From the NCBI GenBank assembly GCA_040755715.1, contig JBFLXN010000071.1, positions 1-12,446 on the forward strand: a DNA stretch of 12,446 nucleotides. Direction: 5' to 3'. Under the pieces are notes generated by a model. That model searched no databases. It had not been told where the DNA came from and worked only from the letters and a program-made list of their open reading frames with translations. Numbering within the stretch: the stretch's first letter is position 1; every line of letters begins with the position of its first letter. Both the position numbers and the translations under genes were made by a program. Of the stretch, positions 50 through 12,446 are shown piece after piece. Origin of the DNA: JBFLXN01 sp040755715 [NCBI: Candidatus Edwardsbacteria bacterium] (GTDB lineage: Bacteria > Edwardsbacteria > AC1 > JBFLXN01).

Positions 50-79
50 ATTATAGCAGTTTAAGAGTTCACTTTTGAA
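50..79 (-). promoter_or_regulatory. Transposase promoter inside the IS terminus
   Basis: On the - strand a perfect TATAAT lies at 55-50. Eighteen nt upstream is TTCAAA (79-74), a 4/6 match to the -35 consensus, and it is part of the inner TTCAAAAGTGAAC repeat. Transcription would start near 43. Transposase bound to its terminal repeat would cover its own -35 box, so autorepression is plausible (inference). Confidence 0.5.
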
Positions 80-141
80 CTTTAAATTCGCTAAAAAGAG
101 TTCACTTTTGAATTTTAAATGACACGAAGGCGAGATTTTCC

Positions 142-233: not shown

Positions 234-260
234 AGGTGCAAATCCTCAACCGGCGGTTTA

Positions 261-313
261 CCCCGTTAGAAATCGGGAAAACATCCGAGATGGACTTCCT
301 GTTTCTAACGGGG
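261..313 (+). repeat. Palindromic repeat in riboswitch P3 (copy A)
   Basis: CCCCGTTAGAAA (261-272) and TTTCTAACGGGG (302-313) are perfect 12-bp inverted repeats around a 29-nt loop. A sequence with nearly the same termini is found before ribD at 774-880. CCCCG (261-265) can instead pair with CGGGG (377-381), extending the TTTA/TAAA base of P3, so two P3 folds compete. Confidence 0.7.
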
Positions 314-318
314 TTCAT

Positions 319-380
319 CCCGTACCTATCCTAAATTGGCGCCATAGGCGCCACCTGGCATCGTGGAGGATAGGTGCGGG
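319..380 (+). repeat. Second long hairpin in riboswitch P3
   Basis: The nested stems are CCCG 319-322 with CGGG 377-380, ACCTATCCT 324-332 with AGGATAGGT 367-375, and TGGCGCC 337-343 with GGCGCCA 347-353 around an ATA loop. Together with the hairpin at 261-313 and a closing TTTA/TAAA stem (257-260/382-385) this makes a three-way junction on P3. Confidence 0.65.
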
Positions 381-515
381 GTAAAGCCCGCGAGTCCAGC
401 ACCTTTCTTAAAACGATATCCGAACAGTGTAAAGAAAAGGTGCTGGATTGATCCGGTTAACTTCCGGAGCCGACGGTGAAAGTCCGGATGGGAGAAGGAA
501 GATATTTTTCTATTT

Positions 516-545: not shown

Positions 546-888
546 TTTAGTTCATCTACCAAAGAATTGGTAAAATCCTATCAAAGTGCTAAAGGGGAGT
601 TCACCATAATTCTTGAACTCTTACCACCGACTAAAGGAGAAAACAACTTCTTAGAATGAATTTATTGCTTCTGGATGCCTTGACGCCCCGATATGTCAGG
701 GCGTAGGCTGTCCTTCTTCCCCCGACTTGTCGAGGGACAAGAGAAGAACAGAAAAAAATATGGACAACGTTCACCCTGTTAGAAAAGAAAAGAGGCTCTG
801 TCCCGATGAAATTGGGACGGGGATTGAAGGAATAAATAGTTTGGGAGAGAGTGAAGCCTGTTCCCAATTTTCTAACGGGGCTCATTAC
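546..888 (+). other. Repeat-rich leader between terminator and ribD
   Basis: I see no gene here. Besides the repeat at 774-880 it holds two short hairpins: ACGCCC (683-688) with GGGCGT (699-704), and CTTGTC (726-731) with GACAAG (736-741). An open frame in phase with ribD runs through from about 727 and has an ATG at 760, but it has no good ribosome binding site and encodes no recognisable domain before residue 1 of RibD. A 16-codon ATG frame at 657 has only a distant AAAGGAG and is not called. Confidence 0.6.
774..880 (+). repeat. Palindromic repeat before ribD (copy B)
   Basis: CCCTGTTAGAAAA (774-786) pairs with TTTTCTAACGGGG (868-880) over 13 bp with one G-U pair. The termini match those of the repeat in riboswitch P3 (261-313), including the TCAT just beyond the right end. 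The interior differs and contains its own hairpin, GTCCCGAT (800-807) with ATTGGGAC (811-818). The right terminus ends 8 nt before the ribD start codon, so its CGGGG may double as a weak ribosome binding site. Confidence 0.7.
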
Positions 889-1959
889 ATGAAATTAGCC
901 CTGAAGTTGGCCCAGAAAGGCAGAGGCAAGACCTCGCCTAATCCAATGGTGGGAGCAGTAATTGTTAAAAATGGAAGAATTGTCGGACAGGGTTTCCACC
1001 AAAAAGCCGGAGAGCCACATGCTGAAATAATAGCCTTACAAAAAGCCAAAGGCAAAACTAAAGGAGCTACCCTCTATGTAAATTTGGAACCTTGCTGTCA
1101 TCAGGGAAGAACTCCTCCTTGCACTTCTGCTATTATCAAAGCAAAAATCAAACGGCTGGCCTGTGCGATGATTGACCCTAATCCCTTGGTTAATGGAAAG
1201 GGAATAAATACATTGCGCCAAGCGGGAATTGAGGTAAAGATCGGAATTTTAGAAAAAGAAGCCAGAGACTTAAATGAAGTTTATCTTAAATTTATTCAGA
1301 AACACTTACCATTTGTTACACTCAAAGCAGGAATGACTCTGGATGGGAAGATTGCCACCAATGCTGGAGAATCAAAATGGATTACCTCTGAAGAGTCCAG
1401 AAAATTTGCTCACAAACTCCGCTTTGAAAATGAGGTGGTGATGGTAGGTGTAAATACTATCATCAATGACGACCCCGAACTGACGGTCAGATGGCAGAAA
1501 GAAAAAAAAACGCAACCAATAAGATTTATTCTTGACAGCCATTTGAGAATTCCCTTGAAGGCAAAAGTAATTAGTGATAAAAAAGCAAGAACCATTATCG
1601 CTACCTCAAAAAAAGTTTCTCTTAAAAAAATAAAATATCTTGAAGACCAGGGTATAGAAGTGTGGCGTATTGAATTAGATGAAACCGGAAAGGTCAGTCT
1701 AAAGAAAATAGTCTGTAGAATGGGAAAAGAAAATTTCACCAGTCTTTTGATTGAGGGGGGGGCTGAAGTAAATGCTGCTGCCTTAAAAGCAAGATTAGTA
1801 GATAAAATATACCTCTTCATTGCACCCAAAATTTTAGGTGGGGAACACCTGTCAGTAGTAGGAGATTTAGGAATAAAAAGTTTAAGGACTTGTATAAAAT
1901 TGTCCAATCTAAAAGTAAAAAAACTCGGAGAGGATTTTTTTCTCACGGGGTATCTCTGA
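889..1959 (+). CDS. ribD: Bifunctional riboflavin deaminase/reductase RibD
   Basis: RibD carries out two steps of riboflavin synthesis in the cytoplasm. It deaminates the pyrimidine from GTP cyclohydrolase II, then reduces the ribosyl side chain with NADPH. The protein is 356 aa, normal for RibD. The N-terminal zinc deaminase domain (about 1-145) shows SPNPMVGAVIV (16-26), HAE (44-46) and EPCC...TPPC (67-78), with H44, C69 and C78 as zinc ligands and E46 as the proton shuttle. The reductase domain (about 143-356) shows KAGMTLDGKIA (146-156) and VGVNTIINDDPELTVR (186-201). I chose ATG 889 because the conserved family N-terminus MKLALKLAQKGRG begins there. The in-frame sequence upstream is repeat DNA. 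It is the first gene after the FMN riboswitch, so it is expected to be repressed by FMN. Confidence 0.95.
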   Translation: MKLALKLAQKGRGKTSPNPMVGAVIVKNGRIVGQGFHQKAGEPHAEIIALQKAKGKTKGATLYVNLEPCCHQGRTPPCTSAIIKAKIKRLACAMIDPNPLVNGKGINTLRQAGIEVKIGILEKEARDLNEVYLKFIQKHLPFVTLKAGMTLDGKIATNAGESKWITSEESRKFAHKLRFENEVVMVGVNTIINDDPELTVRWQKEKKTQPIRFILDSHLRIPLKAKVISDKKARTIIATSKKVSLKKIKYLEDQGIEVWRIELDETGKVSLKKIVCRMGKENFTSLLIEGGAEVNAAALKARLVDKIYLFIAPKILGGEHLSVVGDLGIKSLRTCIKLSNLKVKKLGEDFFLTGYL

Positions 1960-2083
1960 ACAGACTATATCCATCAAAAACTTCATGGTAAGATGATAAA
2001 ATCCCCAAAAATTAAAAATGACCTAAAAAATCAAAGATGAAATTTTTTGAAAAAATTGTAAAAAGGTGAGAGGGAAGAGCCTT

Positions 2084-2671
2084 ATGTTCACTGGTATCGT
2101 TGAAAAAACTGGAAAAGTCCAAAGAATAAGGAAAACCTCAAAGAGTGCAATTCTGACAATTACCGCACCAGAGATTTGTCAGGGAATGAAGATTGGCGAC
2201 AGTATTGCGGTCAACGGTGCCTGTCTCACGGTAATCTCTCACTCAACCCAAGATTTTATTGTTGAACTAATGGAAGAAACCTGGTGCTCAACAAATCTTA
2301 AATATCTCCACCTCACTAGTCCAGTTAATTTAGAGAGGGCACTTCAGTTGGGAGACCATCTGGGTGGACATTTGGTCAACGGACATATTGATACGCTCGG
2401 ACGGCTTATTTCCATAAAAAGACAGGATTCAAGCAAAATCTTTGAAATACAACTAAATAAAAAATTCATCTCTTACCTTATAGAAAAAGGTTCTATTGCA
2501 GTTGATGGTGTGAGCCTTACTATCATAGAAGTTAAAAGAAACTCCTTCACTACCGGCCTCATTCCGCACACTTTGACTCAGACAACTTTGGGCTTACGGC
2601 GAGTAGGTGATGAATTAAATATTGAAATAGACCAAATCGCTAAATACTGCAAACAGTTTACACACAGATGA
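2084..2671 (+). CDS. ribE: Riboflavin synthase, alpha chain type
   Basis: This enzyme catalyses the last step of the pathway, dismutation of two molecules of 6,7-dimethyl-8-ribityllumazine to riboflavin and the pyrimidinedione. The protein is 195 aa and starts with the family signature MFTGIVE. It has the expected tandem lumazine-binding barrels, visible as GDSIAVNGACLTV in the first half and KGSIAVDGVSLTI in the second, with GGHLVNGHID between them. ATG 2084 is preceded by GAGGGAAG. A GTG at 2066 in frame would add six residues but breaks the family start. The stop codon lies inside a repeat (CACAGATGAGCACAGATA), so the C-terminal residues FTHR are probably repeat-encoded. The gene lies 124 nt after ribD, and no terminator is seen between them, so it is probably in the same operon. 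Confidence 0.95.
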   Translation: MFTGIVEKTGKVQRIRKTSKSAILTITAPEICQGMKIGDSIAVNGACLTVISHSTQDFIVELMEETWCSTNLKYLHLTSPVNLERALQLGDHLGGHLVNGHIDTLGRLISIKRQDSSKIFEIQLNKKFISYLIEKGSIAVDGVSLTIIEVKRNSFTTGLIPHTLTQTTLGLRRVGDELNIEIDQIAKYCKQFTHR

Positions 2672-2745
2672 GCACAGATAAAGGCCACAGATGAGCACAG
2701 ATAATCTGTGTTCATCTGTGAAAAAATCTTTGCTTATCTGTGTTT
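2662..2745 (+). repeat. CACAGATGA-type direct and inverted repeats
   Basis: CACAGATGAGCACAGATA occurs at 2663-2680 and again at 2686-2703. The second copy forms a nearly perfect 17-bp hairpin with 2704-2720 (one G-U pair, one-base loop). A further partial inverted copy, GCTTATCTGTG, ends at 2742. No T run follows the hairpin, so a terminator is unlikely. The repeat supplies the ribE stop codon and fills most of the gap to ribBA. Confidence 0.8.
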
Positions 2746-2760
2746 AATTGATAAAGCCTT

Positions 2761-3966
2761 ATGAAAAGCCATTTCAGTAGCATCCCTGAAGCCATCAGGG
2801 AAATTAAAAAGGGGTGCTTCATCATTGTAGTAGATGATGAAGCTCGTGAGAACGAAGGTGACCTGATAATGGCGGCACAAAGAGTGTCACCCAGAGCAAT
2901 AAATTTTATGGCCAGAGAAGCCCGCGGTCTGATTTGCGTTTCCCTCCCTGCCAAAAGGCTTGAAGAACTGCACTTGTATCCTATGACTGTTCGCAATACT
3001 TCAAAGCACGGAACTTCTTTCACGGTTTCTGTTGATGCACTTCACGAAACGACCACTGGTATCTCCGCTCACGACCGAGCATTGACTATAAAGACATTGC
3101 TTAACTCAAAGACTCGCCCTGAGGACCTGGCCAAGCCAGGTCATATCTTCCCTCTGCGGACAGCTGAGGGTGGTGTCCTTCACCGAGCTGGACATACAGA
3201 AGCCGCCAGTGACCTGGCAAAATTGGCTGGGCTATATCCTGCTGGGATTTTGTGTGAAATTATGGCTGAAAATGGAAGAATGGCTAAATTGCCAAAACTA
3301 ATAAAGATGTCCCAGCGGTTCAAACTAAAATTGATTACGATTAAAGATTTAATTGAACATCGGCGTCGGACAGAAAAACTGGTGAAAAAAGTTGTCCAGA
3401 CCAAACTTCCCACTCGTTTTGGTGAATTTGATTTAATCGCCTATGAAGATATGGTGGAAAAGTATCACCACTTGGCTTTGGTCAAGGGAAAGGTAGCTGG
3501 CGAAAAAAATGTTTTGGTGAGAGTTCACTCTCAGTGTTTGACTGGCGACATTTTAGGTTCTCTGCGCTGTGATTGTGGGGAGCAGTTGGTAAAGGCTTTG
3601 AGTCTGATAGAGAGGGAAGGTAAAGGTGTCTTTCTCTATATGCGCCAGGAAGGGAGAGGCATCGGACTTCTGAACAAACTCAAGGCTTACGAACTTCAGG
3701 ACAAAGGGCTTGATACAGTGGAAGCCAATGTGGCTTTAGGGTTTCAGCCAGATGAAAGGGATTATGGAATTGGGGCACAGATTCTTTCTGACCTTGGACT
3801 TTCTACGATTAGACTCCTTACCAACAATCCTAAAAAGATTGCCGGTTTAGAAGGCTATGGGCTGAAGATTGTCAAGCGTATTCCTATTGAGGTGCCGCCG
3901 CATCCGAAAGTTAGAAAATATTTAAAAACAAAGAAAGAAAAATTAGGACATTTCTTAAAAGTTTAA
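2761..3966 (+). CDS. ribBA: Bifunctional DHBP synthase / GTP cyclohydrolase II
   Basis: This 401-aa fusion makes both precursors of riboflavin: 3,4-dihydroxy-2-butanone 4-phosphate from ribulose 5-phosphate (N-terminal RibB) and the pyrimidine from GTP (C-terminal RibA). RibB (about 5-200) shows DDEARENEGDL (25-35), HGTSFTVSVDA (83-93), TTTGISAHDRA (97-107), GHIFPLR (127-133) and HRAGHTEAA (141-149). RibA (about 205-401) shows the zinc site C259, C270, C272 in SQCLTGDILGSLRCDCG, then MRQEGRGIGL (294-303), PDERDYGIGAQ (330-340) and LLTNNPKK (352-359). All key residues are present, so both activities are expected. The start codon lacks a clear Shine-Dalgarno sequence and closely follows repeat DNA. 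The fusion is common in bacteria. Confidence 0.96.
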   Translation: MKSHFSSIPEAIREIKKGCFIIVVDDEARENEGDLIMAAQRVSPRAINFMAREARGLICVSLPAKRLEELHLYPMTVRNTSKHGTSFTVSVDALHETTTGISAHDRALTIKTLLNSKTRPEDLAKPGHIFPLRTAEGGVLHRAGHTEAASDLAKLAGLYPAGILCEIMAENGRMAKLPKLIKMSQRFKLKLITIKDLIEHRRRTEKLVKKVVQTKLPTRFGEFDLIAYEDMVEKYHHLALVKGKVAGEKNVLVRVHSQCLTGDILGSLRCDCGEQLVKALSLIEREGKGVFLYMRQEGRGIGLLNKLKAYELQDKGLDTVEANVALGFQPDERDYGIGAQILSDLGLSTIRLLTNNPKKIAGLEGYGLKIVKRIPIEVPPHPKVRKYLKTKKEKLGHFLKV

Positions 3967-4586: not shown

Positions 4587-4958
4587 GAAGCCCCTGAAGA
4601 ACTCATTAACCACGGAAACACAAAACGATGATATGCTAATATGCTTATACGCTGAGACGGATTCATCCTAAACGGAAAGTATATATGGCGGACAGGTTAG
4701 GGTTACGGTTAAAGGGTTACGGTTACGAGGCCCGTTTCGGTCAATAAGTTTATTGGGTTTATTGAGTTCATTGAGTTTCTTGAGTTTTTTAACCCAAGAA
4801 ACTATGTAAACCCAAAAAACTGTGCAAACTTTCTCAAGATTGACGATACAAGCCTCATAACCCTAACCATTGGCGATGTTGCCTATACATATCAGCTTAT
4901 CACCATATCAATCTGCCATAGGCGGATGTTTCTGTAGTTTTTTAGGAGTAACTAAGTA
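4587..4958 (+). other. 372-nt repeat-filled gap between ribH and nusB
   Basis: No gene is seen here. GGTTAGGGTTA (4695-4705) begins a telomere-like run of GGTTA units to 4727 and is exactly inverted at 4858-4868. Inside that pair lie the 9-nt tandem repeat at 4749-4784 and a 9-bp inverted pair, AGTTTCTTG (4774-4782) with CAAGAAACT (4795-4803). Near nusB, ATCTGCC (4911-4917) and GGCGGAT (4921-4927) form a hairpin around ATA. The nusB ribosome binding site AGGAG is at 4944-4948. Confidence 0.7.
4749..4784 (+). repeat. Four tandem 9-nt repeats
   Basis: Consecutive units read TTTATTGGG, TTTATTGAG, TTCATTGAG and TTTCTTGAG, followed by a T run. Nine nucleotides keep any reading frame, but no coding frame is apparent here. 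Confidence 0.8.
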
Positions 4959-9437: not shown

Positions 9438-10193
9438 ATGTCGGGTCATTCTAAATGGGCAACTATTAAGCGTAAGAAAGGGAAGGCTGACCTGGAGCGA
9501 GGTAGAATTTTTACCCGTTTGATTAGGGAAATTACTGCGGCTGCTCGTCAAGGAGGCGACCCCGAAGCCAATCCTCGTCTGCGCACCGCTGTTGCGGCGG
9601 CAAAGACGGCCAATATGCCGCAAGATAATATAGAGCGGGCAATCAAAAAAGGAACGGGCGAATTGCCTGGTGTAACTTATGAGGAAGTGACTTATGAAGG
9701 CTATGGCCCAAACGGCGTCGCCATTTTGGTAGAAGCCTTGACTGACAACAAGAATAGAACAACTTCAGAACTCCGACATCTGTTCTCCAGACACGGTGGG
9801 AACCTCGGTAGCGTTGGTTGCGTCTCATGGATGTTTGAGCATAGAGGAATAATTACTATTGACCAGAATAAGTGTGATGAAGACTGCTTATTAGCTTTAG
9901 CCTTGGAAGCCGGAGCAGAAGATGTCAGAAGTGAAGACGGCACTTTTGAAATTATCACCAGCCCAGCAAATTTTGAGAAGGTGAAAAAATCTCTGGAAAC
10001 GCAAAAGATTGAATGGATTAACGCTGAACTCACGAAAGTCCCACAAAGCAATGTCCCCTTGGAAGGGAAGGATGCGGAACAAATGCTGAAATTGATGGAA
10101 GCGATTGAAACCTGTGAAGATGTCCAGAAAGTCTACGCCAATTTTGATATTCCAGAAGTGGTAATGGAACAAATAGCCAGCTCCACTCAGTAA
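9438..10193 (+). CDS. yebC: YebC/PmpR/TACO1 family protein
   Basis: Full-length YebC (251 aa) with the invariant start MSGHSKWATIKRKKGKAD, then IFTRLIREI, NPRLRTAVAAAKTANMPQDNI and YEGYGPNGVAILVEALTDN. Members were first described as transcriptional regulators. More recent work links the family to translation of proline-rich stretches at the ribosome, and mitochondrial TACO1 activates translation of COX1. GGGAGGG stands a few nt before ATG 9438, a strong ribosome binding site. The order yebC-ruvC-ruvA is conserved in many bacteria and supports the identities of the genes that follow. Confidence 0.95.
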   Translation: MSGHSKWATIKRKKGKADLERGRIFTRLIREITAAARQGGDPEANPRLRTAVAAAKTANMPQDNIERAIKKGTGELPGVTYEEVTYEGYGPNGVAILVEALTDNKNRTTSELRHLFSRHGGNLGSVGCVSWMFEHRGIITIDQNKCDEDCLLALALEAGAEDVRSEDGTFEIITSPANFEKVKKSLETQKIEWINAELTKVPQSNVPLEGKDAEQMLKLMEAIETCEDVQKVYANFDIPEVVMEQIASSTQ

Positions 10194-10195
10194 AA

Positions 10196-10295
10196 TCAAA
10201 AATCAAAAGGCAAAATGTCTTTTAATGGAATTTCTAAATATTTGAATTTTGGTTTGTCATTTTGATATTTGATTTTTAAATTTTGATTTTTACCT
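10196..10295 (+). repeat. ATCAAAA-type AT-rich inverted repeats before ruvC
   Basis: Copies of ATCAAAA and AAATC motifs (10196-10220) are inverted in TTTTGATATTTGATTTTT and TTTTGATTTTT (10260-10291), so nearly the whole 107-nt gap between yebC and ruvC is one imperfect palindrome. No ribosome binding site for ruvC is left. Confidence 0.6.
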
Positions 10296-10300
10296 TACAG

Positions 10301-10876
10301 ATGTCCTCACGAAAAATCTTAGGTATTGACCCGGGAAGCCTTTCTACGGGTTATGGAATTATTAAGACCCCACCCTTACCCTCCCCTTCACCGCAAATGC
10401 GGGATCCCGCTCTGGCGGGACAAGAGGAGGGATATAGGGAGGGGTCAAGTGACAGGATTGCCAAGCGGAGTGAAGCACATCTTGTAATTTGTGGTTGTCT
10501 CAAAAACAAACAAAAAATCCCTTTCTCTTTCCGGTTTCTTCACATTTATGAAGGATTAGAAGAAATAATTGCCCGCTATCAACCTGACGAAGTGGCGATA
10601 GAATCTATCTTTTATCATAAAAATGTGCGCAGTGCCTTATTGATGGGTGAAGTTAGAGGAGTGGCTCTTTTAGCCTGCCAGAAGGCTAACCTACCTATTT
10701 TTGAATATTCGCCATTAGAAATAAAGCAATCGGTGGTTGGCACGGGGTCTGCTTCAAAGAAACAAATTCAATTTATGGTGAAAACACTTTTGCGACTGAA
10801 AGAATCACCGGCGGAAGACGCTGCTGATGCCTTAGCGGTAGCCTTGTGTCACCTACACAGAAGTAGATCGTGCTAG
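10301..10876 (+). CDS. ruvC: Holliday junction resolvase RuvC with an insert
   Basis: RuvC is the dimeric endonuclease that cuts Holliday junctions after RuvAB branch migration. The catalytic acidic residues are all present: D10 in ILGIDPGS, E101 in EVAIES, and D173 and D176 in EDAADALA. The body matches the family, for example HIYEGLEEII (81-90) and VGTGSASKKQIQ (146-157). The 191 residues include about 30 that the family lacks, between the first strand (GYGII, 17-21) and the second (LVICGCL, 61-67). The core of that insert, T23-S49, is encoded by a palindromic element at 10366-10446. The insert lies in a strand-to-strand turn away from the active site, so the enzyme may still work. I chose ATG 10301 over TTG 10283 for the family N-terminus; no Shine-Dalgarno sequence is visible. 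Confidence 0.93.
   Translation: MSSRKILGIDPGSLSTGYGIIKTPPLPSPSPQMRDPALAGQEEGYREGSSDRIAKRSEAHLVICGCLKNKQKIPFSFRFLHIYEGLEEIIARYQPDEVAIESIFYHKNVRSALLMGEVRGVALLACQKANLPIFEYSPLEIKQSVVGTGSASKKQIQFMVKTLLRLKESPAEDAADALAVALCHLHRSRSC
10366..10446 (+). repeat. 81-nt palindromic element inserted in frame in ruvC
   Basis: The left arm GACCCCACCCTTACCCTCCC (10366-10385) continues CTT to 10388. The right arm at 10422-10446 reads AAGAGGAGGGATATAGGGAG, then GGGTC. The arms are inverted repeats of 23-25 nt with few mismatches. The centre holds TCCCGC (10405-10410) and GCGGGA (10415-10420) around TCTG. The length of 81 nt is 27 codons and keeps the ruvC frame open. Translated, it gives a Pro/Ser-rich then Glu/Gly-rich stretch unlike any RuvC sequence I know. 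Confidence 0.8.
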
Positions 10877-10935: not shown

Positions 10936-11145
10936 GTGAGTATCACGTTAAAGGAACGTTATCTAATAGATGAAAAGGGAAAGCGTGTTGGCGTGCTACT
11001 AGATATGAAAGATTACCGTAGGTTGCTTGAGGATTTGGAAACATTGGAATCTATTCGTGCCTATGATGCCGCTAAAGCCTCTGGTGATGAGGCTATTCCA
11101 TTTAAGCAAGCAGTTGATGAGATTGAGCGAAAGCGACGACAATGA
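10936..11145 (+). CDS. RelB/Phd-type antitoxin
   Basis: This small acidic/basic protein of 69 aa has the pattern of prevent-host-death/RelB-like antitoxins: a short N-terminal DNA-binding part with KGKRVGVLLDMKDYRRLLEDL (in two blocks, from residue 15), then a helical toxin-binding tail ESIRAYDAAKASGDEAIPF. It should neutralise the adjacent RelE-type toxin and repress its own promoter. The start is GTG 10936; the ATG two nt earlier is followed at once by a stop. GGGAGG lies 6 nt upstream. The stop overlaps the toxin start by 4 nt (ATGA), the usual coupling in such pairs. It looks intact although its toxin is interrupted. No operator was identified in the 59 nt after ruvC. Confidence 0.82.
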   Translation: MSITLKERYLIDEKGKRVGVLLDMKDYRRLLEDLETLESIRAYDAAKASGDEAIPFKQAVDEIERKRRQ

Positions 11146-11566
11146 GTTATAGCGTTTTCATTCTGCGACGCGCCCAGAAGGAGTTGGCACAATTGTCCAG
11201 TGAGGCTTATGAACGCGTTAGAGATGTCATTCGTACTCTTGCCAAAGACCCTCGACCAGCCGGCTGTCTCAAGTTGATAGGCCGCAATGGATGGCGCATC
11301 CGTATAGGTGATTATCGTGAAGCATCGGAATTTGGAAAATTCCGATGGTGTAAGGAGAGGTTTGGAGAGGAAAAACGGTTTTCCTCTCCAAGGGGTGACA
11401 GCGGAAAAATGCGACGAGTAGGAGCATTTTGGAGCGCCATAGGGGCTATCGCCCCTATGGACAAGATTGCGACGAAGTCGCATATCTTGTGATTTATGAG
11501 ATAGACGGCAAGCAACGGGTGGTGACGGTCCTTCATATCGGTCATCGGCAGGCTGTTTACCGCTGA
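11142..11566 (+). pseudogene. RelE/ParE-type toxin interrupted by a repeat element
   Basis: The N-terminal 59 residues (11142-11318), from MSYSVFILRRAQKEL to GWRIRIGDYR, are a clear RelE-superfamily ribosome-dependent RNase/ParE-like toxin fold. The family continues directly with VIYEID...VLHIGHR. Exactly that continuation, 25 codons from GTG 11489 to TGA 11566, is found 170 nt later in another frame. Joined, the two parts give 84 aa, the normal length. The 170-nt insert (3n+2) shifts the frame, and translation from ATG 11142 runs instead to TGA 11490-11492, replacing the last strands, where catalytic residues lie, with an unrelated 57-residue tail. The toxin is therefore probably inactive unless the insert is bypassed. 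Confidence 0.85.
11319..11488 (+). mobile_element. Multi-hairpin repeat element inside the toxin gene
   Basis: Five hairpins stand one after another: CATCGGAATT/AATTCCGATG (11323-11332/11338-11347); TTGGAGAGGAAAA/TTTTCCTCTCCAA (11362-11374/11379-11391); AAAATGC/GCATTTT (11406-11412/11424-11430); CCATAGGGGC/GCCCCTATGG (11437-11446/11451-11460); and ACAAGAT plus TGCGAC with GTCGCA plus ATCTTGT (11461-11473/11477-11490, one bulge). GTGA stands at both edges (11317-11320 and 11489-11492), perhaps a short target duplication. It encodes no transposase, so it would be a passive MITE-like element moved by functions supplied elsewhere. Confidence 0.7.
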
Positions 11567-12324: not shown

Positions 12325-12446
12325 TGTTAGCTAAATTTCAAAAGTGAACCATTTAAACTTCAAAAGTGAACTGCTGTAGATCACTGATTTTTACTCTTTG
12401 AACATCGATAAGTTTGTTATTACACCAGAATCTGACCTCAGCTATG
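12325..12446 (-). mobile_element. 3' end of an insertion sequence (right window edge)
   Basis: Reading inward on the + strand from 12325, TGTTAGCTAAAT leads into TTCAAAAGTGAAC at 12337-12349 and again at 12359-12371 (22-nt spacing). This matches the element end at 1-124 in inverted orientation. A - strand reading frame enters from the right and stops at 12353, inside the repeats, so this is the element's 3' end. The gene on the left edge is also on the - strand, so the two copies lie in direct orientation. The 63 nt between ruvA and 12325 hold nothing recognisable. Confidence 0.7.
12353..12445 (-). CDS. Transposase C-terminus (partial, runs off right edge)
   Basis: Thirty codons are read on the - strand from 12445 to the stop TAA at 12355-12353, beginning IAEVRFWCNNKLIDVQ and ending KISDLQQFTFEV. 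The alternation VRFW...KLIDVQRVKISDL resembles the small beta-barrel tail of DDE integrase-type transposases. This resemblance is a recollection and was not searched. The frame ends within the terminal repeats of the element, as expected of a transposase gene that fills its insertion sequence. Confidence 0.55.
   Translation of the reverse strand: MAEVRFWCNNKLIDVQRVKISDLQQFTFEV

What the first reader, a model, noticed from the sequence alone, without database searches (positions are those of the whole stretch)
10366..10446. In-frame palindromic element inside the ruvC coding sequence
An 81-nt palindrome with 23-25-nt arms and a nested central hairpin lies inside ruvC between strands 1 and 2. 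Its length is a multiple of three, the frame stays open, and the four catalytic acids of RuvC remain. Removing it leaves a normal-length turn. This resembles the Rickettsia palindromic elements that insert in frame in protein genes, but here in an unrelated-looking genome and in a DNA repair enzyme. It may create a new protein segment (Pro/Ser-rich, then acidic) in a solvent-exposed loop.
Basis: partly seen in the sequence, partly recalled or inferred. Interest (0 to 1): 0.85.

Follow-up and report, generated by a model that had tools for sequence, protein, structure and literature searches.

The report
BoxC-like mobile palindrome inside ruvC
A short self-complementary DNA repeat has been inserted in frame into the gene of a DNA-repair enzyme without destroying it, and in other bacteria a small nuclease gene (DUF559) is usually bracketed by repeats of the same kind, which may be the missing enzyme that spreads them.

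Summary
Window 10366-10446 is an 81-nt imperfect palindrome (-48.8 kcal/mol, z -4.6) inside an open ruvC. In 44 homologues the same turn has 3-10 residues; here it has 39. The four catalytic acids remain and the insert models as a low-confidence loop.

It is not a Rickettsia element. Its ends have the intrastrand-triplex geometry of BoxC/PIT/"TM" repeats: on the minus strand CCCTCCTC-(37 nt)-GGGGAGGG-TAA-GGGTGGGG, plus a weaker inverted unit. A strict scan finds this only here in the window, in 0 of 60 simulated windows, 0 of 60 control loci, and 51 of 60 loci of DUF559 (Vsr-like nuclease) genes. Hairpins lie within about 400 nt of DUF559 in 47/48, 28/30 and 28/30 loci of three phyla, against 1/19 and 2/28 controls. 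DUF559 and such palindromes also sit in frame inside HsdM, a type ISP enzyme and an Elp3-like protein.

Best reading: a non-autonomous BoxC/PIT-like palindrome, possibly mobilised by a DUF559 nuclease, landed in frame in ruvC. Insertion is well supported; mobilisation is inferred. The window's own genome is not held, so copies there could not be counted.

The parts
10301..10876 (+). ruvC coding sequence (191 aa) carrying the insert
   Evidence: Pfam RuvC 1.9e-45; Foldseek to solved RuvC structures, best E 4.2e-17
10366..10446 (.). 81-nt imperfect palindromic element, in frame (27 codons' length)
10368..10375 (-). third strand of triplex unit 1 (minus strand GGGTGGGG)
10376..10378 (-). second loop of unit 1 (minus strand TAA; BoxC/TM type A has TTA)
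   Evidence: TM loop from PMC4666352
10379..10386 (-). purine stem of unit 1 (minus strand GGGGAGGG)
10424..10431 (-). pyrimidine stem of unit 1 (minus strand CCCTCCTC, one mismatch)
10379..10443 (+). weaker inverted unit 2: CCCTCCC ... AGGAGGG-ATATA-GGGAGGG
   Evidence: relaxed scan (7-nt stems, one mismatch allowed in the third strand)
10391..10402 (.). possible inner hairpin 1 CCGC-AAAT-GCGG
10405..10420 (.). possible inner hairpin 2 TCCCGC-TCTG-GCGGGA
10447..10482 (+). stretch after the element (about SSDRIAKRSEAH), a few residues more than homologues carry
   Evidence: alignment
10328..10330 (+). catalytic Asp10
10601..10603 (+). catalytic Glu101
10817..10828 (+). catalytic Asp173 and Asp176

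Best explanation
The element is a non-autonomous mobile palindrome of the BoxC/PIT (intrastrand-triplex) type: two inverted C-rich/G-rich triplex units around a variable core. It was inserted in frame into ruvC, where it codes a 27-residue, Pro/Ser-rich then acidic loop between strands 2 and 3 and leaves the predicted fold and the active-site acids in place. Elsewhere such palindromes bracket a small Vsr-like PD-(D/E)XK nuclease gene, DUF559, and both the palindromes and the whole DUF559 unit occur in frame inside other protein genes. Proposed mechanism, all inferred: the palindrome folds when its strand is exposed in replication; the DUF559 nuclease, made in trans, cuts or nicks at the folded unit or at a target; repair copies the unit into the new site. 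In-frame copies survive because the C-rich repeat is often open in several frames and because host proteins tolerate a flexible loop at a turn.
For: Insert: the 44 RuvC homologues aligned lack it; palindrome z -4.6; 122 of 191 residues have pLDDT 90 or more, the insert about 50-65. Family: the strict triplex scan hits only this element in the window, 0 of 60 Markov windows, 0 of 60 control loci (177,233 bases), 51 of 60 DUF559 loci. A covariance model of 15 such palindromes (none from the window) gives the element as best window hit, 20.2 bits, E 0.014; 129 matches in 59 DUF559 loci at E <= 0.1; none in 60 control loci at E <= 1. DUF559 link: hairpins in near flanks 82/93 versus 6/53 at 1-1.4 kb (phylum of G011), 48/60 versus 6/60 (phylum of G012); 28 of 30 loci in the phylum of G006. 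Genomes with strong DUF559 carry more copies of CACCCTNACCCTC (mean 4.9 in 35 versus 1.04 in 112, p 1.3e-6; the reversed control shows no difference). In E. coli the DUF559 gene is ycjD, and a TM unit that fits the published pattern starts 167 nt after it in a K-12-like strain. In-frame precedent: HsdM of G155 and G160 and an HsdM piece of G151, a type ISP enzyme of G094, an Elp3-like protein of G453. One palindrome is present in HsdM of G155 where HsdM of G160 has 8 other residues.
Against: No second copy could be sought in the window's own genome, and none of the 13 window ORFs scanned is DUF559. The element does not fit the strict TM_ECO pattern: 8-nt stems and a 37-nt first loop instead of 9 and 3-6. 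The covariance model aligned the left arm but took inner bases for the right side, and E 0.014 is modest. No nuclease activity on such palindromes is shown; a DUF559 protein of Caulobacter is thought to act in mismatch repair (PMC12907096, passages). Some palindrome-rich genomes gave no strong DUF559 hit (9 of 112 others have 4 or more pattern matches), and E. coli O157 genomes have TMs without ycjD (rows). E. coli strains without ycjD carry efflux genes at that site, so there is no clean empty site. Of five named DUF559 regions, the hairpin rule found both sides in two, one side in one and none in the two E. coli ones, whose TM stem has a mismatch. No target-site duplication is evident by eye in ruvC. 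The CACCCTNACCCTC pattern includes chance coding matches.
Confidence: 0.6

Rival explanations
1. The palindrome is a real in-frame BoxC/PIT-like insert, but DUF559 is a passenger: a homing-type nuclease gene that settles in pre-existing palindromes rather than the enzyme that spreads them. (Shares the insertion part with the best explanation.)
For: DUF559 copies are few while palindromes are many (G131: 47 pattern matches, 2 DUF559 places). E. coli genomes without ycjD still hold some TMs.
Against: Hairpins flank DUF559 on both sides in most loci examined (37/48, 20/30, 22/30), and copy number rises with DUF559 (not corrected for kinship).
Confidence: 0.3
2. The palindrome belongs to the REP/REPIN kind and is spread by a RAYT (Y1 transposase).
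For: Y1_Tnp genes are common in the same phylum (87 of 147 genomes), and copy number correlates weakly with them (rho 0.18, p 0.03).
Against: No GTAG or CGTC word or complement in 10346-10466. The correlation nearly vanishes once DUF559 is accounted for (partial 0.08 versus 0.37). The palindrome model matches in 1 of 12 Y1 loci, against 129 matches in 59 DUF559 loci.
Confidence: 0.07
3. A Rickettsia-type palindromic element of unrelated sequence, or another lineage-specific MITE, with its own unknown mobiliser.
For: Same behaviour: in-frame palindromic insert in a conserved gene (PMC2229807, passages).
Against: 81 nt against 105-146 nt; the arm sequence and triplex geometry match the DUF559-flanking family.
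Confidence: 0.13
4. Artefact or local accident: an assembly chimera, or a chance inverted duplication inside ruvC.
For: No genome is held for the window, so nothing independent confirms this stretch.
Against: Arms are imperfect, the frame and active site are kept, and the geometry occurs in 0 of 60 simulated windows.
Confidence: 0.04
5. An old, conserved lineage-specific RuvC loop that only looks like a mobile element.
For: A few extra residues beyond the palindrome; nearest relatives are distant (RuvC 52%, EF-G 53%).
Against: None of 44 aligned homologues, including 29 taken from the phylum of G011, has it.
Confidence: 0.06

Closest known systems
BoxC / PIT / intrastrand triplex motif TM_ECO (PMC4666352: abstract, sections 10, 15, 16, 18, part 1 of section 20, passages)
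   Same: C-rich stem, G-rich stem, 3-nt second loop, mirror third strand with a T*A position; inverted pair of two unlike units.
   Different: 8-nt stems, a 37-nt first loop with inner hairpins, and position inside a protein gene (TM_ECO is described as always intergenic in E. coli MG1655). The paper reports that no mobility activity was found around TM sites (passage); here, starting from DUF559 genes, such palindromes flank most of those examined.
Rickettsia palindromic elements (PMC2229807, passages)
   Same: Palindromes read in frame inside conserved protein genes; a tolerated loop in an enzyme.
   Different: Different length, sequence and host; RPEs are called Rickettsia-specific there.
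REP/REPIN with RAYT (PMC3116915, PMC3733652, PMC8266576: search listing only)
   Same: Short palindrome with a one-sided tag, inverted pairs, bracketing of a DNA-cutting enzyme gene (REP features partly recalled).
   Different: The tag here is a triplex third strand, not GTAG/CGTC, and the bracketed gene is DUF559, not a Y1 transposase.
M. jannaschii palindromic elements with coding potential (Suyama 2005; seen only in the reference list of PMC2229807)
   Same: Coding palindromes outside Rickettsia (title only).
   Different: Not compared here.

Membership tests
BoxC/PIT/TM (general intrastrand class II triplex) | Pyrimidine stem, purine stem and mirror third strand of 8 nt or more, at most one mismatch | tested here: met
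   Minus strand CCCTCCTC / GGGGAGGG / GGGTGGGG, one mismatch in the first stem, none in the third
BoxC/PIT/TM (general) | Loops of 1-6 nt (ITxF rule) | tested here: not met
   Second loop 3 nt fits; first loop is 37 nt
TM_ECO | CCCTCNCCC N3-6 GGGNGAGGG N3 GGGNGAGGG | tested here: not met
   8-nt variant stems and long first loop (against the pattern); filed as a variant, not a member
BoxC/PIT/TM | Many copies in the genome | not testable with these tools
   Own genome not held; one copy in the window
DUF559-bracketing palindromes (defined here) | Matches the covariance model of such palindromes | tested here: met
   Best window hit, 20.2 bits, E 0.014; controls empty at E <= 1; right side only partly aligned
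DUF559-bracketing palindromes (defined here) | Found next to a DUF559 gene | tested here: not met
   None of 13 window ORFs scanned with Pfam is DUF559; read as a non-autonomous copy
Rickettsia palindromic elements | In-frame insertion in protein genes | tested here: met
Rickettsia palindromic elements | 105-146 bp, Rickettsia-specific | tested here: not met
REP/REPIN-RAYT | GTAG or CGTC tag at the stem foot | tested here: not met
   Neither word nor its complement in 10346-10466
RuvC | RNase H-like fold with four acids | tested here: met
   that these four are the catalytic acids is recalled

The most novel reading that the evidence does not exclude
BoxC/PIT triplex palindromes and DUF559 nucleases form one mobile system found in at least three phyla, run by a Vsr-like nuclease instead of a transposase. 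Both its autonomous (nuclease-bearing) and miniature forms enter genes in frame and so add new segments to proteins, here to the Holliday-junction enzyme RuvC, whose own substrate resembles the cruciform that such a palindrome can make.
Probability: 0.4. Interest if true: 0.9.

Novelty: new variant of a known kind. Interest (0 to 1): 0.72.

Why it matters
[quoted passage not shown] coli sites it analysed (PMC4666352, abstract and passages). A nuclease family that is bracketed by such palindromes in three phyla makes their spread directly testable, including in E. coli K-12, where the DUF559 gene ycjD and a BoxC/TM unit are neighbours. In-frame copies in RuvC, HsdM, a type ISP enzyme and an Elp3-like protein show a route by which selfish palindromes could add segments to working proteins outside Rickettsia.

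Tried and rejected
Own-genome copy count: not possible. Viral contigs: RuvC gave nothing; the arm gave one contig with a half element and no palindrome evident by eye; the inner hairpin gave none. Phage and plasmid DNA searches with the element gave only short weak matches, best E about 3 in plasmids and 10 in phages. RuvC DNA against plasmids: none. Rfam at gathering thresholds: none. The phylum of G003 was tried as the window's home and fits worse (EF-G 43% at best in 98 genomes, against 53% in 147 genomes of the phylum of G011). Placement in or near the class of G032 is inferred from distant identities; no name is told for these genomes. RAYT as mobiliser: tested and not favoured. A clean E. 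coli empty site for ycjD was sought; the two strains looked at without it have efflux genes there, the eef operon of PMC12817139 (passages), so this shows replacement, not simple insertion. The gap between ycjD-positive and ycjD-negative E. coli in TM places (39 rows mean 4.3, 21 rows mean 1.8) is confounded by lineage. The E. coli control genome of the PF04480 search did not ring although ycjD is annotated as DUF559, so that search can miss members.

Selections: DUF559 loci were the best-scoring ones returned (30 per phylum, plus 20 more in the phylum of G011, that is 50 of 55 places with E up to 1.3e-16; 48 had both flanks of 150 nt or more). A few of them lie inside longer frames, so not all are stand-alone genes. 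The 35 'strong' genomes use the same limit. The weak PF04480 controls are 20 of the lower-scoring places (19 with both flanks). L130 was left out because its genome trained the model. L040 was dropped from the 45 RuvC sequences as a duplicate of L011. The RuvC set is the best 30 of 113 genomes with a match; the other 83 were not aligned. One of the 15 training palindromes (L230) is an HsdM copy, so its own match is not independent. Four smaller records were dropped from the 60 rows.

Full report
What is there. The window holds ribD, riboflavin synthase, ribBA and ribH genes, nusB, a phosphoesterase, a glycosyltransferase, an EF-G, yebC, ruvC and ruvA (Pfam). Inside ruvC (10301-10876) lies an 81-nt imperfect palindrome at 10366-10446. 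As a single strand it folds to -48.8 kcal/mol; 200 dinucleotide shuffles average -31.4 with sd 3.8 and none folds as well. Neither its arm nor its inner hairpin occurs elsewhere in the window with up to 3 mismatches.

The insert. Forty-four RuvC homologues, 15 from a scan of the genome contigs and 29 further ones from the phylum that holds the best relatives (its best 30 of 113 matching genomes less one duplicate), were aligned. Between the GYGII and LVICG positions they have 3 to 10 residues, median 7; the window has 39. The palindrome accounts for 27 of these and a few more residues lie after it. All four acids (D10, E101, D173, D176) are kept. AlphaFold2 gives a RuvC fold (mean pLDDT 87, insert residues about 50-65) with the insert as a loop between strands 15-22 and 60-68; Foldseek finds solved RuvC structures first. 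Whether the loop touches DNA or the dimer interface was not tested.

Lineage. No whole genome is held for the window. EF-G is 53% identical to its best relatives, G019 and G025, and RuvC 52% to G032; these three make up one held class. The relation is distant. A search of that class with the whole element gave only weak short matches, best E 0.33. One of them, in G032, was a palindrome at the 3' end of a DUF559 gene, which opened the lead below.

The family. In the phylum of G011 the arm word CACCCTNACCCTC occurs 288 times in 147 genomes against 81 for the word read backwards, with 47 in one genome, G131. Many copies of G131 show the architecture of the window element: a C-rich arm with two blocks, a variable core, and the mirrored G-rich arm. 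One (L139) shares the 13 letters GAGGGATATAGGG with the window's right arm, although its core is different. Of the 27 G131 copies fetched, 15 lie under no open frame of 100 codons or more (counted); the rest lie under frames on either strand that I did not test for being genes. The literature search for the arm words led to PMC4666352, which describes them as BoxC, PIT elements or intrastrand triplex motifs, with the pattern CCCTCNCCC N3-6 GGGNGAGGG N3 GGGNGAGGG. It reports that TM_ECO is always intergenic in E. coli MG1655 and that the five inverted pairs there each join unlike types, and that no mobility activity was found around the sites (passage).

The window element by the same rule. On the minus strand it reads CCCTCCTC, 37 nt, GGGGAGGG, TAA, GGGTGGGG. 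The third block is an exact antiparallel mirror of the second with T opposite A. A weaker unit points the other way (relaxed settings). I scanned with 8-nt stems, one mismatch in the first, none in the third, first loop up to 60. The window has this site only, in overlapping registers; 0 of 60 first-order Markov windows and 0 of 60 control loci (177,233 bases: EF-G, RuvC and weak PF04480 loci) have one; 51 of 60 DUF559 loci do. The first loop is too long for the published rule and the stems are variants, so the element is filed as a variant of the kind, not as TM_ECO.

An independent model. A covariance model was built from 15 palindromes, 14 of G131 and one of G155. It matches 129 places at E <= 0.1 in 59 DUF559 loci of two phyla (188.7 kb; many places are counted on both strands) and nothing at E <= 1 in 60 control loci (177.2 kb). 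In the window its best match is the element (10367-10431, 20.2 bits, E 0.014, filters off); the next is 12.9 bits. The alignment uses the left arm well but takes inner bases for the right side.

DUF559. DUF559 genes (strong PF04480 hits) are bracketed by such palindromes. A hairpin was counted when it had a perfect stem of 8 or more, loop 3-12, and at least half G+C. In the phylum of G011 hairpins lie in the 400-nt flanks of 47 of 48 loci (both sides 37); around weak PF04480 hits 1 of 19, around RuvC 2 of 28. In the phylum of G012 28 of 30 (both 20); near flanks 48 of 60 against 6 of 60 at 1-1.4 kb; the same comparison in the phylum of G011 is 82 of 93 against 6 of 53. In the phylum of G006 28 of 30 (both 22), far flanks 6 of 57. 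Strict triplex sites within 500 nt on either side: 42 of 50 (G011), 21 of 30 (G012) and 25 of 30 (G006) loci. Of five named regions, Deinococcus and Sphingomonas have hairpins on both sides, Synechocystis on one, and two E. coli records on neither by this rule. Genomes with strong DUF559 have more arm words (mean 4.9 in 35 against 1.04 in 112, Mann-Whitney p 1.3e-6; the control word shows no difference). Shared ancestry is not corrected for, and 9 of the 112 others have 4 or more words. Y1 transposase genes explain little: partial rank correlation 0.08, against 0.37 for DUF559, and 1 of 12 Y1 loci has model matches.

What DUF559 is. The domain consensus keeps F-RQ, DF, E-DG and H at 90% or more in 45 domains. 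The only clear solved relative by sequence is 3hrl, an endonuclease-like protein (5.5e-24). A DUF559 protein of Caulobacter, VsrA, is described as Vsr-like and of the PD-(D/E)XK superfamily (PMC12907096, passages).

E. coli. The gene ycjD is annotated as DUF559. A 500-nt query of ycjD with short flanks matches 3365 of 5426 complete genomes, 3362 of them over at least 80% of the query. In a K-12-like chromosome a BoxC/TM unit starts 167 nt after ycjD; in MG1655 derivatives it lies at the coordinates of number 9 in the published table. With 23 TMs in the chromosome, one within 500 nt of a given gene has a chance of about 0.007. In two strains without ycjD that place holds efflux genes (PMC12817139, passages). 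ycjD-positive rows have more near-identical TM places (mean 4.3 in 39 against 1.8 in 21), but lineage confounds this, and O157 rows have TMs without ycjD.

In-frame precedents. HsdM of G155 and G160 carries DUF559 in frame, flanked by palindrome-coded peptides such as RPSPFPLPK, and further in-frame palindromes; a piece of the same gene in G151, spread over two frames, is built alike. One palindrome, RPSPLPSPIGRGSEGEG, is in HsdM of G155 where that of G160 has 8 other residues. A type ISP enzyme of G094 has DUF559 and arrays of in-frame palindrome peptides. An Elp3-like protein of G453 (Radical SAM and weak GNAT matches; the Elp3 name is my reading) has a DUF559 domain in frame ahead of its Radical SAM match. 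The G155 HsdM insert and the ruvC insert read the C-rich strand in the same frame (xCA CCC ... CCC TCx); another HsdM insert uses a different one.

How it most likely works. Shown: an in-frame palindromic insert in ruvC, triplex-type ends by sequence, and the bracketing of DUF559 genes by the same kind of ends in three phyla. Inferred: that DUF559 cuts at the folded units, that repair copies them to new sites, and that the ruvC copy came that way. Not shown: activity, expression, triplex formation, or movement.

Literature limits. DUF559 occurs in 14 papers of the held library; I saw titles and abstract starts and read passages of one (PMC12907096). None of the listings showed me a paper linking DUF559 to BoxC/PIT/TM repeats; most subscription papers and all bioRxiv preprints are missing from that library.

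Noticed in passing
window 260-390: Two further inverted repeats of another kind (ACCCCGTTAGAAATCGGG... and CGGGGTTCATCCCG...CCTATCCT) upstream of ribD; no Rfam family reaches its threshold in the window.
   Followed up: no
window 4746-4831: A 41-nt-armed imperfect inverted repeat (71%) between ribH and nusB.
   Followed up: no
window 10192-10290: A-T rich inverted repeats (AAAATCAAAAATCAAAAGGCAAAATG) fill the yebC-ruvC gap.
   Followed up: no
window 66-121 and 12332-12372: Inverted copies of AGTTCACTTTTGAATTTTAAATG near both ends of the window.
   Followed up: no
window 11142-11492: ORF between ruvC and ruvA whose start looks like a RelE-type toxin by eye; no Pfam match at 0.001.
   Followed up: partly
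L229, L230, L231 (G151, G155, G160): HsdM genes with DUF559 and several palindromes in frame; one palindrome differs between G155 and G160.
   Followed up: yes
L287 (G453) 772-3000: Elp3-like Radical SAM gene with a DUF559 domain in frame inside it.
   Followed up: partly
E. coli genomes: BoxC/TM copy number per E. coli chromosome looks bimodal in the rows listed: 12 of 56 chromosome rows have 3-7 places and 44 have 15-33.
   Followed up: partly
L018 6277-6300: A GC-rich viral contig holds one arm (GACCCCACCCTAACCCTCCCCTTC) without a palindrome evident by eye.
   Followed up: no
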